A stretch of DNA of 34,572 nt, taken from Burkholderiales bacterium. GTDB taxonomy: Bacteria > Pseudomonadota > Gammaproteobacteria > Burkholderiales > Burkholderiaceae. The notes under the pieces are model-generated. The model saw only the letters and a list, made by a program, of their open reading frames with translations, was not told where the DNA came from and did no database searches. Where the stretch lies: the NCBI GenBank assembly GCA_947371645.1, contig CANBQJ010000013.1, forward strand, positions 1 through 34,572, read 5' to 3'. Positions 32,696 to 34,572 of the stretch are shown in pieces (the first letter of the stretch is position 1; every line of letters starts with the position of its first letter). The position numbers were made by a program, and so were the translations under genes.

Positions 32696-32789
32696 GCCGA
32701 TATCGAACTTCAATGCGTGTCATGGCGTCTCAAAGTTGTAGGCGTTACCTAGGGGAATGGCCGATATGTTGACTCAAGGCGTGTCATGG
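32696..32789 (+). repeat. Imperfect 30-bp direct repeat with 64-bp spacing before the integrase gene
   Basis: 32696-32725 and 32760-32789 match at 23 of 30 positions in perfect register. They share gccgatat, then tcaa, then gcgtgtcatgg. The second copy covers the ATG at 32786 that is one candidate integrase start. This looks like a degenerate tandem duplication or paired recombinase arm sites at the end of an integrative element. Confidence 0.5.
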
Positions 32790-32836
32790 GGCATCATCCA
32801 ATCACACCACGTTTGGTGGGTTTTTGGGTGGGTGGA

Positions 32837-34072
32837 GTGCCGAAAAAGGTCAAGGAGATGTCTGCTCTGGAGGTGGGTAGGCTGAAGGAGTCAGGACTGC
32901 ACGCAGTTGGCGGGGTGGCCGGCTTGTGCCTGCAGGTGCTCGACTCTGGCGCGCGTAGCTGGATCCTACGCCTGACCGTAGGCGGCAAACGCAGGGAGAT
33001 GGGCCTGGGCGGCTTTCCCGATGTGCCCCTGGCCGACGCCCGCCGCCGGGCTCGCGAAGAGCGTGAAAAGGCAGACCAGGGGGTCGACCCGATCGCTGCG
33101 CGCAAGGCCGCATCGGGCGCTCTCCGCGCCCAGCGGGCCAAGGCCATCACCTTCAAGCAGGCGGCCGAGGCGTACATCAAGGCCCATGAGCCCACCTGGC
33201 GCAACGCCAAGCACGCCGAGCAGTGGTCCAACACCCTGGCCAGCACGTATCCCAAGATCGGCTCGCTGAGCGTGGCCGACATCGAGCTGGCTCATGTCCT
33301 GTCCGTGCTGGAGCCTATGTGGCGCACCCGCACTGAAACCGCCACCAGGCTGCGCGGCCGCATCGAGTCGGTGCTCGATTGGGCGACCGCACGCGGCCAT
33401 CGGGATGGCCTGAATCCGGCGCGCTGGCGTGGGCACCTGGACAAGTTGCTGCCAGCGCCGGCCAAGATCATGAAGCCCAAACACCTGCCTGCCGTGGCAG
33501 TCGCTGACGTTGGGGCGTTCATGGCCGAGTTGCGTCAGCAAGCAAGCATGGGCGCCAAGGCCTTGGAGTTCGTGATCCTCACGGCGGCACGCTCAGGCGA
33601 GGTGAGGGGCGCGACCTGGGAAGAAATCGACCTGGCCGAGGCTGTCTGGACCGTCCCCGGCGAGCGCATGAAGGCAGCCAAGGAGCATCGCGTGCCCCTG
33701 AGTCCTCAGGCCGTGAAGCTGCTCAAGGCGTTGCCTCGACACGCGGAAACGCCTTACGTGTTTCCGGCGCCGCGCGGAGGCCAGATGTCCGACATGACCC
33801 TGGTGGCCGTGATGCGCCGCATGGGTCGCGAGGAAGTGCCCCACGGCTTCCGGTCAACGTTTCGGGACTGGGTGGCCGAGTGCACCAACTACCCCAACGA
33901 GGTGGCCGAGATGGCTCTGGCGCACGTGATCGCCAACAAGGTCGAGGCGGCCTACCGGCGCGGGGATCTGTTCGACAAGCGCCGCCGAATGATGCATGAA
34001 TGGGCTGCGTTCTGCGCCAAGGCAGGGGGCAGCGCCGGCAAGGTGATTCCAATGAAGAAAACCGCCGCCTGA
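32837..34072 (+). CDS. int: Tyrosine site-specific integrase (P4 type, DUF4102 N-terminus)
   Basis: 411 residues from GTG 32837, which gives the family-typical start VPKKVKEMSALEV. An ATG at 32786 would add 17 residues without similarity and lies in a direct repeat, though it has an AAGG upstream. The enzyme inserts and excises an integrative element. The DUF4102 arm-binding domain (LHAVGGVAGLCLQV, MGLGGFPDVPLADARRRARE) is followed by a core-binding region and the catalytic domain. Arg is in LTAARSGEVRGATWEEIDL, HxxR in VPHGFRSTFRDW, and His and Tyr in ALAHVIANKVEAAYRRGDLF. All catalytic residues are present, so it is probably active. The stop codon sits within the first copy of the hairpin element that follows. 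Confidence 0.93.
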   Translation: MPKKVKEMSALEVGRLKESGLHAVGGVAGLCLQVLDSGARSWILRLTVGGKRREMGLGGFPDVPLADARRRAREEREKADQGVDPIAARKAASGALRAQRAKAITFKQAAEAYIKAHEPTWRNAKHAEQWSNTLASTYPKIGSLSVADIELAHVLSVLEPMWRTRTETATRLRGRIESVLDWATARGHRDGLNPARWRGHLDKLLPAPAKIMKPKHLPAVAVADVGAFMAELRQQASMGAKALEFVILTAARSGEVRGATWEEIDLAEAVWTVPGERMKAAKEHRVPLSPQAVKLLKALPRHAETPYVFPAPRGGQMSDMTLVAVMRRMGREEVPHGFRSTFRDWVAECTNYPNEVAEMALAHVIANKVEAAYRRGDLFDKRRRMMHEWAAFCAKAGGSAGKVIPMKKTAA

Positions 34073-34132
34073 CGGCCTCAGGCAAAGCGGGCCTGAAGGC
34101 TGCGTCAACAGCGTCCAGGCCCTGACCAAAAC
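34067..34132 (+). ncRNA. Structured RNA element, copy A (two-hairpin leader of the 83-residue gene)
   Basis: Hairpin 1: gcctga, loop cggcc, tcaggc (34067-34083). Then aaagc and a larger hairpin 2: outer stem gggcctg/caggccc (34089-34095 with 34116-34122) enclosing an inner stem gctg/cagc with loop cgtcaa (34099-34112). It ends with tgaccaaaac, then a Shine-Dalgarno and the ATG at 34152. Copy B at 34415-34483 has the same layout with different stem sequences. Hairpin 1 includes the integrase stop codon. It is probably a cis-acting mRNA leader; an attenuator or protein-binding role is possible but unknown. Confidence 0.65.
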
Positions 34133-34151
34133 CGATCACAAGGAGATCGAA

Positions 34152-34403
34152 ATGGCTGAAATGACTTTAACCGACGATGCCCAAGGCCTGTTCTATGAGG
34201 CCGTCTACGAGCTGGACAAACTGAGCCGCATCCTGCCCGGGCTGGTGCCACTCACGGATGACCAAACGCATTACGCGGTCAAAGGTGTGGCCGGTCGAAT
34301 GGTCCGACTGTCTGGGGTGTTGATGCAATTGCTCGGAGCCCCGGGCGTGGTCGAAGGCAATGTGAAGCACATCATCAACTTCGAATCGACAGGACAGGGC
34401 TGA
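34152..34403 (+). CDS. Hypothetical 83-residue protein of the integrative element
   Basis: 83 residues, acidic at the N-terminus (MAEMTLTDDAQGLFYEAVYE), not recognised. A likely helical segment (LFYEAVYELDKLSRIL) is followed by a loop and a second helical stretch (GVAGRMVRLSGVLMQLLGA). No transmembrane helix, signal peptide, helix-turn-helix or cysteine motif is clear. The ATG has a strong Shine-Dalgarno (AAGGAGATCGAA), so it is probably well translated. It lies between two copies of the hairpin element, 79 bases after the integrase, and is expected to be an accessory gene of the element. It could be a small regulator or a DNA-associated protein; that is guesswork. Confidence 0.75.
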   Translation: MAEMTLTDDAQGLFYEAVYELDKLSRILPGLVPLTDDQTHYAVKGVAGRMVRLSGVLMQLLGAPGVVEGNVKHIINFESTGQG

Positions 34404-34414
34404 TATCTGAAGGC

Positions 34415-34483
34415 GCCTCAGCGGTTCTGAGGCAAAGCGACCCGAAGCAGCGGCGGCAACCGCTGCCCGGGTCTGACCACAAC
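34415..34483 (+). ncRNA. Structured RNA element, copy B (two-hairpin leader of the last gene)
   Basis: Hairpin 1: gcctcag, loop cggtt, ctgaggc (34415-34433). Then aaagc and hairpin 2: outer stem gacccg/cgggtc (34439-34444 with 34468-34473) enclosing gcagcgg/ccgctgc with loop cggcaa (34447-34466). It ends with tgaccacaac. It shares ggcaaagcg, the CGGYY and CGNCAA loops and the TGACCAnAAC tail with copy A, while the stems differ by compensatory changes. It lies 12 bases after the 83-residue gene and 27 bases before the next ATG. Confidence 0.65.
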
Positions 34484-34510
34484 GCACTTACCCTGAAAGG
34501 ACCGTGCACA

Positions 34511-34572
34511 ATGGCTATCCAAGATCGTAAAGGCAATTTGCATCAGCTTTTTCCGAGAGCCACCATCACCTC
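34511..34572 (+). CDS. Start of an unidentified gene, cut by the window edge
   Basis: An ATG at 34511 preceded by AAAGGA at a 9-base distance opens a frame that runs off the right edge after 20 full codons (MAIQDRKGNLHQLFPRATIT). It is too short to identify. Its position behind a second copy of the hairpin element, in the same layout as the 83-residue gene, suggests another gene of the integrative element under the same type of control. Confidence 0.6.
   Translation, partial: MAIQDRKGNLHQLFPRATIT

What the first reader, a model, noticed from the sequence alone, without database searches (positions are those of the whole stretch)
34067..34483. Two copies of a two-hairpin RNA element with compensatory changes in an integrative element
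Copies at 34067-34132 and 34415-34483 share ggcaaagcg, a CGGYY pentaloop, a CGNCAA hexaloop and a tgaccanaac tail. The stems differ but still pair: hairpin 1 is gcctga/tcaggc in one and gcctcag/ctgaggc in the other (a G-C pair replaced by C-G). The outer stem of hairpin 2 is gggcctg/caggccc versus gacccg/cgggtc, and the inner stem is gctg/cagc versus gcagcgg/ccgctgc. Covariation within one window is strong evidence that RNA structure is conserved. Each copy sits just before a small gene's Shine-Dalgarno. A shared leader before successive genes of a mobile element could be an attenuator or regulator-binding site that switches the element's genes together. Published surveys describe RNA motifs between integrase genes and neighbours (for example int-alpA); I cannot say whether this is one of them.
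Basis: partly seen in the sequence, partly recalled or inferred. Interest (0 to 1): 0.8.

Follow-up and report, generated by a model that had tools for sequence, protein, structure and literature searches.

The report
Antisense RNA switches in mobile DNA
The two hairpin elements next to a DNA-integrating enzyme gene are best read as two small RNA genes on the opposite strand, which probably silence the genes that follow by covering their start signals; similar RNA genes were found in many other bacterial genomes and viral sequences.

Summary
In detail: two copies of a structured element, 34067-34132 and 34415-34483, each before a small gene. Hairpin 2, and a third hairpin it missed that holds the Shine-Dalgarno, look like the two stem-loops of an antisense RNA on the minus strand. 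In 67 related copies hairpin 2 is interrupted by 41 A.C against 8 G.U mismatches (A.C on + is G.U on -). The minus strand folds better in 65 of 67. A minus-strand -10 box lies in codons 5-7 of unrelated genes in 64 of 68 copies and 38 of 41 further ones. A minus-strand model, built without window, IncQ or SymR sequences, finds both window copies, the RepX locus of IncQ plasmids and E. coli SymR, two known antisense RNAs. SymR's annotated 5' end is base 6 of symE, where the family predicts it. The model hits 39 of 299 sampled genomes of the phylum. Most likely: a portable SymR/RepX-type antisense cassette controlling mobile-element genes. Not shown: transcription or repression here, and what hairpin 1 does.

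The parts
34083..34159 (-). antisense RNA gene, copy 1 (SymR/RepX type; two stem-loops, linker, CGCUUU end)
   Evidence: R2 match 59.3 bits, E 1.2e-13, window not in the model
34433..34518 (-). antisense RNA gene, copy 2
   Evidence: R2 match 48.2 bits, E 1.3e-10, window not in the model
34164..34169 (-). -10 box TAAAGT of antisense RNA 1, inside codons 5-6 of the 83-aa frame
   Evidence: minus-strand TANNNT at +13 from the ATG; TANNNT at +13 or +14 in 64 of 68 copies and 38 of 41 further ones
34524..34529 (-). -10 box TACGAT of antisense RNA 2, inside codons 5-7 of the next frame
   Evidence: minus-strand TANNNT at +14 from the ATG
34157..34157 (-). predicted 5' end of antisense RNA 1 (base 6 of the reading frame)
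   Evidence: inferred from annotated SymR, whose 5' end is base 6 of symE; base 6 is T in 66 of 68 copies
34516..34516 (-). predicted 5' end of antisense RNA 2
   Evidence: inferred as for copy 1
34133..34149 (-). hairpin 3 of copy 1 (SLI of the antisense RNA; covers the Shine-Dalgarno of the 83-aa gene)
   Evidence: folds; SLI helix: 6 of 6 pairs with changes on both sides in 28 other copies
34484..34508 (-). hairpin 3 of copy 2 (SLI), approximate ends
34089..34122 (-). hairpin 2 of copy 1 (SLII of the antisense RNA)
   Evidence: covariation; A.C 41 against G.U 8 on the + strand over 67 copies
34439..34473 (-). hairpin 2 of copy 2 (SLII)
   Evidence: as copy 1
34123..34132 (-). conserved linker (tgaccaaaac; GUUUUGGUCA on the antisense RNA), copy 1
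   Evidence: invariant and near-invariant columns in 67 copies; also in RepX and SymR
34474..34483 (-). conserved linker, copy 2 (GUUGUGGUCA on the antisense RNA)
   Evidence: as copy 1
34067..34083 (.). hairpin 1 of copy 1, CGGNN loop, holds the integrase stop codon; terminator-like on the minus strand
   Evidence: terminator-like match on - at 34085-34065; strand undecided (G.U 6, A.C 10)
34415..34433 (.). hairpin 1 of copy 2, CGGNN loop
   Evidence: no terminator-like match here
32786..34072 (+). tyrosine integrase upstream of copy 1
   Evidence: Pfam PF00589, PF13356, PF22022
34152..34403 (+). 83-aa reading frame, proposed target of antisense RNA 1
   Evidence: no Pfam or PHROGs family; the protein search returned only itself
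34511..34572 (+). start of the next frame (cut by the window end), proposed target of antisense RNA 2

Best explanation
Each copy is a small cis-antisense RNA gene on the minus strand, of the SymR/RepX type. Transcription starts near base 6 of the downstream reading frame from a promoter whose -10 box lies in codons 5-7. It yields an RNA of about 75-85 nt with stem-loop SLI (complement of hairpin 3), the linker GUUGUGGUCAG, stem-loop SLII (complement of hairpin 2) and a short U-containing 3' end (complement of AAAGCG); it may read on through hairpin 1. The RNA is complementary to the Shine-Dalgarno and start codon of the following gene, so pairing should block its translation, as reported by others for SymR on symE and proposed for RepX on repA. 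The cassette is portable: it sits in front of unrelated genes of integrative elements, viral contigs and plasmids, and the window carries two successive ones. Shown here by computation: structure, strand, -10 box, family relationship, distribution. Inferred: transcription and repression in this element, the exact ends, and the idea that the RNA keeps the genes silent until the element enters a cell lacking the RNA.
For: Covariation of SLI and SLII: 94.9% of cells paired, 13 of 15 pairs with two-sided changes, 0 of 500 shuffles. Strand: helices defined by Watson-Crick pairs only, interruptions in hairpin 2 are 8 G.U against 41 A.C in 67 copies, most of them found with a plus-strand model, and 7 against 34 in 39 further copies (found with the minus-strand model, so less independent); minus strand lower in MFE in 65 of 67 and in shuffle z-score in 60 of 67. 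Promoter: minus-strand TANNNT at +13/+14 in 64 of 68 copies against a mean of 1.26 and a maximum of 5 in control windows, in 38 of 41 further copies (neither model contains these bases; the 41 were not de-duplicated among themselves), in 7 of 369 other gene starts. -35 score highest at spacer 16 of 44 spacers in 38 further copies (z 2.9). U enrichment at the antisense 3' end: 0.68 and 0.83 at two positions against 0.28 in the further copies, 0.79 against 0.23 in viral ones. Relationship: R2 hits the pSRC15 RepX locus at 59.5 bits, pDN1 at 44.2, the window copies at 59.3 and 48.2, E. coli SymR at 38.4 bits, E 3.4e-9 in 10 kb; 19 loci with chance pattern matches gave nothing below E 0.2 (best 0.21). 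Annotated SymR starts at base 6 of symE. Known function of relatives: passages of PMC1891008, PMC4147584, PMC8136791.
Against: No transcript data for this organism. The window region has no consensus -35/-10 promoter on either strand; the first 63 copies show no -35 signal, and in 33 viral copies spacer 16 is only fourth (z 1.5). The U-run after SLII is short in the window (CGCTTTGCC), and one of three terminator-like matches there falls on SLI of copy 1, where it would end the RNA early. RNAalifold did not separate the strands. Rfam's own models do not place the window copies in RF01809 or, at gathering score, in RF00043. The linker is more conserved than simple pairing needs. Hairpin 1 was not seen (by eye) in RepX and SymR loci and is unexplained. 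4 of 68 and 3 of 41 copies lack the -10 box by the regular expression (one of the 4, L056, by a wrong start codon).
Confidence: 0.87

Rival explanations
1. A plus-strand mRNA leader (attenuator, riboswitch or protein-binding site); the minus strand is only its shadow.
For: The plus strand also folds and covaries; hairpin 3 holds the Shine-Dalgarno; hairpin 1 could act on the mRNA (G.U 6, A.C 10, undecided); the consensus folds of both strands have near-equal energies.
Against: A.C exceeds G.U 41 to 8 in hairpin 2; conserved minus-strand -10 box in unrelated reading frames; matches on the minus strand to two known antisense RNAs.
Confidence: 0.06
2. The antisense RNA exists but acts mainly otherwise: in trans on sister copies through the shared linker, by interfering with transcription of the mRNA, or as the antitoxin of a type I toxin-antitoxin pair.
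For: The linker and the AGCCAU start are shared by nearly all copies, so copies could pair with each other's targets there; 9 of 75 downstream proteins of further and viral copies match SymE_toxin.
Against: SymR is reported to block translation at the ribosome-binding site of the gene opposite it, and RepX overlaps that of repA (passages); at least 58 of 64 downstream proteins of the first set match no Pfam family and none matches SymE.
Confidence: 0.1
3. A DNA-level element: recombination or integrase-binding sites that happen to be palindromic.
For: 39 of 68 upstream frames match PF00589 integrase; copies occur in tandem in one element.
Against: 29 of 68 upstream frames have no PF00589 match, though some frames are cut or wrongly chosen; a DNA site gives no reason for A.C over G.U, nor for fixed spacing to start codon and -10 box.
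Confidence: 0.03

Closest known systems
SymR, antisense RNA of symE in E. coli (Rfam RF01809)
   Same: [quoted passage not shown] R2 finds it at 38.4 bits.
   Different: The 83-aa target in the window matches no Pfam family, so is not a recognised SymE; hairpin 1 is extra; RF01809 does not hit the window region at E up to 10.
RepX / R1162 antisense RNA of IncQ plasmids (Rfam RF00043, whose model matches the complementary, mRNA strand)
   Same: 75 nt, two stem-loops, overlaps ribosome-binding site and start of repA; TAGGCT at +14; R2 59.5 and 44.2 bits.
   Different: Controls plasmid replication; no hairpin 1 seen; RF00043 scores only 27.9 and 26.4 on the window against a gathering score of 55.
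FinP (IncF plasmids)
   Same: Two-stem-loop antisense RNA, likened to RepX by its authors (passages).
   Different: Not compared by sequence here.
int-alpA motif
   Different: No Rfam family of any kind at gathering score in the window; presence of int-alpA in that library not checked.

Membership tests
SymR/RepX-type cis-antisense RNA (as defined here) | two covarying stem-loops on the antisense strand joined by a linker like UUGUGRUYAG | tested here: met
SymR/RepX-type cis-antisense RNA (as defined here) | promoter -10 box inside codons 5-7 of the target | tested here: met
   64 of 68 and 38 of 41 copies, both window copies included in the 64
SymR/RepX-type cis-antisense RNA (as defined here) | RNA starts near base 6 of the target, is transcribed and blocks translation | not testable with these tools
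   reported by others for SymR and, in part, RepX
Rfam RF01809 symR | score at or above 61 bits | tested here: not met
   no hit in window 33900-34572 at E up to 10; E. coli symR scores 95.3
Rfam RF00043 Plasmid_R1162 | score at or above 55 bits | tested here: not met
   27.9 and 26.4 bits, plus strand
IncQ RepX system | downstream gene is the repA helicase | tested here: not met
   83-aa frame has no Pfam family; the second gene is cut by the window end
SymE/SymR type I toxin-antitoxin | downstream gene is a SymE toxin | tested here: not met
   no Pfam hit for the 83-aa protein; the second gene is cut by the window end
FinO/ProQ-dependent antisense RNA | FinO/ProQ-domain protein in the host | tested here: inconclusive
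   PF04352 in 7 of 13 genomes that carry the element; the window's own genome is not held
mRNA leader / attenuator / riboswitch | plus-strand structure under selection (G.U kept, A.C avoided) | tested here: not met
   hairpin 2: G.U 8, A.C 41; hairpin 1 undecided

The most novel reading that the evidence does not exclude
SymR and RepX, two RNAs that Rfam files in separate families, are outliers of one large family of portable antisense-RNA cassettes. A unit of promoter, start-codon region, two stem-loops and terminator is grafted in front of arbitrary genes of integrative elements, prophages and plasmids. It holds them silent in a settled host and releases a burst when the element enters a cell that lacks the RNA (zygotic induction). 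The over-conserved linker UUGUGRUYAG would be a common handle for a protein or for cross-talk between resident elements.
Probability: 0.35. Interest if true: 0.86.

Novelty: new variant of a known kind. Interest (0 to 1): 0.73.

Why it matters
Two studied cases of antisense control (a toxin and a plasmid replication gene) would become members of one family present in about one in eight sampled genomes of the phylum (39 of 299), often in front of genes that Pfam does not name (at least 58 of 64 in the first set). It would give a simple, testable rule for how many mobile elements gate their first genes, a -10 box to mutate silently in each case, and candidate antisense pairs for engineering. It also shows that strand should be tested, by A.C against G.U counts, before a conserved intergenic structure is called a leader.

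Tried and rejected
BLAST of the 523-base region against plasmids and phages found nothing. The protein search with the 83-aa frame returned only itself, from 2 candidates. The pattern scan of viral contigs gave 6 loci, 2 real by eye; the scan of genome contigs gave 29 loci, 14 real by eye and then by R1, but 11 of those 14 are in R1's training set. The other 4 + 15 loci served as controls. A -35 box in the first copies was looked for and not found. RNAalifold on the rough alignment gave near-equal energies on both strands (-7.84 and -7.78), so it does not separate them. Phage records for three viral contexts: no match. A whole-genome control in E. coli with R2 was not possible, because that genome is not held. 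A DNA-site reading and an mRNA-leader reading were set aside for the reasons under rivals. Structure prediction of the 83-aa protein was not run. Two early paper searches gave listings without use, one listed mostly unrelated cystic fibrosis papers.

Training overlap: R2 has 28 training sequences; window, IncQ and SymR sequences are not among them, but several come from genomes in the samples (L010 and L054 both from G001, the centre). R1 contained window copy 1.

Rows dropped: of 80 R1 matches 10 were left out, 9 for want of ATGGC or ATGAC behind them and L087 by hand; 2 near-duplicates were removed, leaving 68. That choice fixes most of bases 1-5 of the frame, so their conservation is not evidence. 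Some of the dropped look real with other starts (L075, L085, L103). L111 lacked the linker anchor, leaving 67. The 41 further copies are 57 matches less 16 re-finds; loci are held only for the best matches of each genome search. In one search, 5 of 68, 3 of 41 and 1 of 34 copies were not used for the -35 score (no -10 box or too little sequence), and the 34 viral copies are a hand-thinned part of the 60 matches. For one search three short viral frames (L182, L224, L234) were left out. Upstream frames were picked as the longest ending nearby and some are probably spurious.

Full report
WHAT IS THERE. The window ends just inside what looks like an integrative element. A tyrosine integrase (32786-34072) is followed by an 83-aa frame of no known family (34152-34403) and by the start of another frame (34511 on). 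The match to its two anchors occurs twice and never in 100 shuffles. Rfam gives no hit at gathering score. With relaxed thresholds both copies resemble RF00043, the R1162 plasmid antisense RNA, at 27.9 and 26.4 bits against a gathering score of 55. That weak hint led to the rest.

MORE COPIES. A pattern scan of the genome contigs (84,980 species by the tool's description) gave 29 loci, 14 of them real by eye, in records titled Roseateles, Castellaniella, Thiobacillus, Accumulibacter, Azoarcus, Zoogloeaceae and others; a scan of viral contigs gave 2 real ones of 6. A model of hairpins 1 and 2 on the plus strand (R1) found 33 of 399 genomes of the order, 7 of 369 of the class and 16 of 250 of the family of one host. 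In the window and 76 held loci there are 80 matches, of which 68 distinct ones with a start codon were analysed (drops are listed under tried and rejected). Upstream frames match PF00589 integrase in 39 of 68 and HTH_3 in 8 of 68. The first genes downstream are unrelated to each other: 64 proteins gave six Pfam families, each in one member only, among them ArdC anti-restriction, RadC and GIY-YIG.

A THIRD HAIRPIN AND A BLOCK INSIDE THE GENES. Between the tgaccaNaac tail and the ATG there is a third hairpin that holds the Shine-Dalgarno. Although the proteins differ, the DNA of their first codons is alike: base 6 is T in 66 of 68, and bases 14, 15, 18 and 19 are A, T, T, A in 53, 51, 51 and 55 of 68 (bases 1-5 are largely fixed by the choice of rows). 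Read on the minus strand this is a -10 box. TANNNT at +13 or +14 is present in 64 of 68 copies, against a mean of 1.26 and a maximum of 5 in control windows, and in 7 of 369 other gene starts with a Shine-Dalgarno-like stretch in the held loci, 1 of 50 among those that begin ATGGC. The two registers speak against a protein motif.

WHICH STRAND. An A.C mismatch on one strand is a G.U wobble on the other. With helices defined by Watson-Crick pairs alone, single interruptions in hairpin 2 are 8 G.U and 41 A.C in 67 copies, spread over positions and contexts; hairpin 3 has 1 and 29, but in few columns; hairpin 1 has 6 and 10, undecided (binomial p for hairpin 2 2e-6, which treats copies as independent). 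These copies had been found by pattern or with a plus-strand model, so any search bias should run the other way. In 39 further copies found with the minus-strand model the counts are 7 and 34. The minus strand has the lower free energy in 65 of 67, and after correction for composition in 60 of 67. The consensus fold of the rough alignment did not separate the strands.

THE FAMILY. A minus-strand model (R2, 28 sequences, without window, IncQ or SymR) shows covariation in 13 of 15 pairs. It finds both window copies (59.3 and 48.2 bits), the RepX locus of IncQ1 plasmid pSRC15 (59.5 bits) and that of pDN1 (44.2 bits), and nothing below E 0.2 in 19 control loci. It finds E. coli SymR at 38.4 bits. 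SymR is annotated as 77 nt starting exactly at base 6 of symE, and a TAGAAT lies at +14 to +19 of symE. R2 finds 39 of 300 genomes of the order, 39 of 299 of the phylum and 35 of 274 of the class of one host, up to 8 copies in one genome (these samples share some genomes, and strict filters lose weak matches). In 41 further copies the -10 box, which is not part of R2, is present in 38. In these 38 the -35 score is highest at spacer 16 of 44 spacers tried (z 2.9); in the first 63 no -35 signal is seen, and in 33 viral copies spacer 16 is only fourth. The antisense 3' flank is U-rich. Of 75 downstream proteins of the further and viral copies 9 match SymE_toxin, 8 HNH_3 and 4 Cpn10.

HOW IT WORKS. 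For SymR, a silent change of the -10 box inside symE abolished the RNA and raised SymE protein, and SymR in trans repressed it (PMC1891008, passages; PMC4147584, passages). For RepX, a 75-nt antisense RNA with two stem-loops overlaps the ribosome-binding site and start of repA, mutations in it raise copy number, and FinO binds it (PMC8136791, passages; PMC9977716, passages). The founding R1162 paper was not held. The window copies have the same parts in the same order at the same spacing, so translational repression of the 83-aa gene and of the next one is the best inference. It has not been shown here. A FinO/ProQ protein is not always at hand: 7 of 13 host genomes have one.

WHAT STAYS OPEN. 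Hairpin 1 was not seen in the RepX and SymR loci (by eye). CGG stands in the place of its loop in 57 of 68 copies. In copy 1 it is terminator-like on the minus strand, and its outer flank is U-rich on that strand over 58 copies (0.69 at the nearest base against 0.22), but copy 2 shows no such match, and another terminator-like match falls on SLI of copy 1. The linker is conserved more than pairing needs. The window's own genome is not held.

NOVELTY. Antisense RNAs over start codons are known, and SymR and RepX are known. Not found in print: no held paper names both SymR and RepX, none holds RepX, antisense, integrative and FinO together, and the five papers with the text RF00043 do not bear on it by their titles (one was opened and no passage was found). 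A search for any two of SymR, R1162, RepX, RSF1010 and IncQ gave 168 papers, of which 15 were listed, none of them with SymR. These searches cover only open-licence papers. The new part is the unification, the strand, the spread, and the use in front of unrelated mobile-element genes.

Noticed in passing
window 34088-34159 and L036 384-458: Rfam RF00043, named R1162-like plasmid antisense RNA, matches the mRNA-sense strand of repA leaders, i.e. the complement of RepX as described in PMC8136791.
   Followed up: partly
L290 4836-4912 and L036 379-458: SymR (RF01809) and RepX (RF00043) are found by one minus-strand model and look like one family; the Rfam tables show no clan for either.
   Followed up: yes
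window 34067-34083, 34415-34433; just upstream of the matches in L124 and L130: Hairpin 1 keeps a CGGNN loop while its stem changes, also in more distant copies (by eye); its role is unexplained.
   Followed up: partly
L170, L187, L189 (viral contigs): The antisense cassette sits in front of HNH endonuclease genes (L170, L187) and a chaperonin-10-like gene (L189) of viral contigs; 8 and 4 of 75 downstream proteins match these families.
   Followed up: partly
window 32710-32732 and 32774-32796: Imperfect 23-base direct repeat (83%) just upstream of the integrase start, a candidate integrase arm site.
   Followed up: no
L018, L084, L125, L157, L214: Tandem copies of the cassette about 350 to 1060 bases apart, as in the window.
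   Followed up: partly
G1119, G1272, G1275: Genomes with 8, 5 and 5 matches of the antisense model; most of their contexts were not examined.
   Followed up: no
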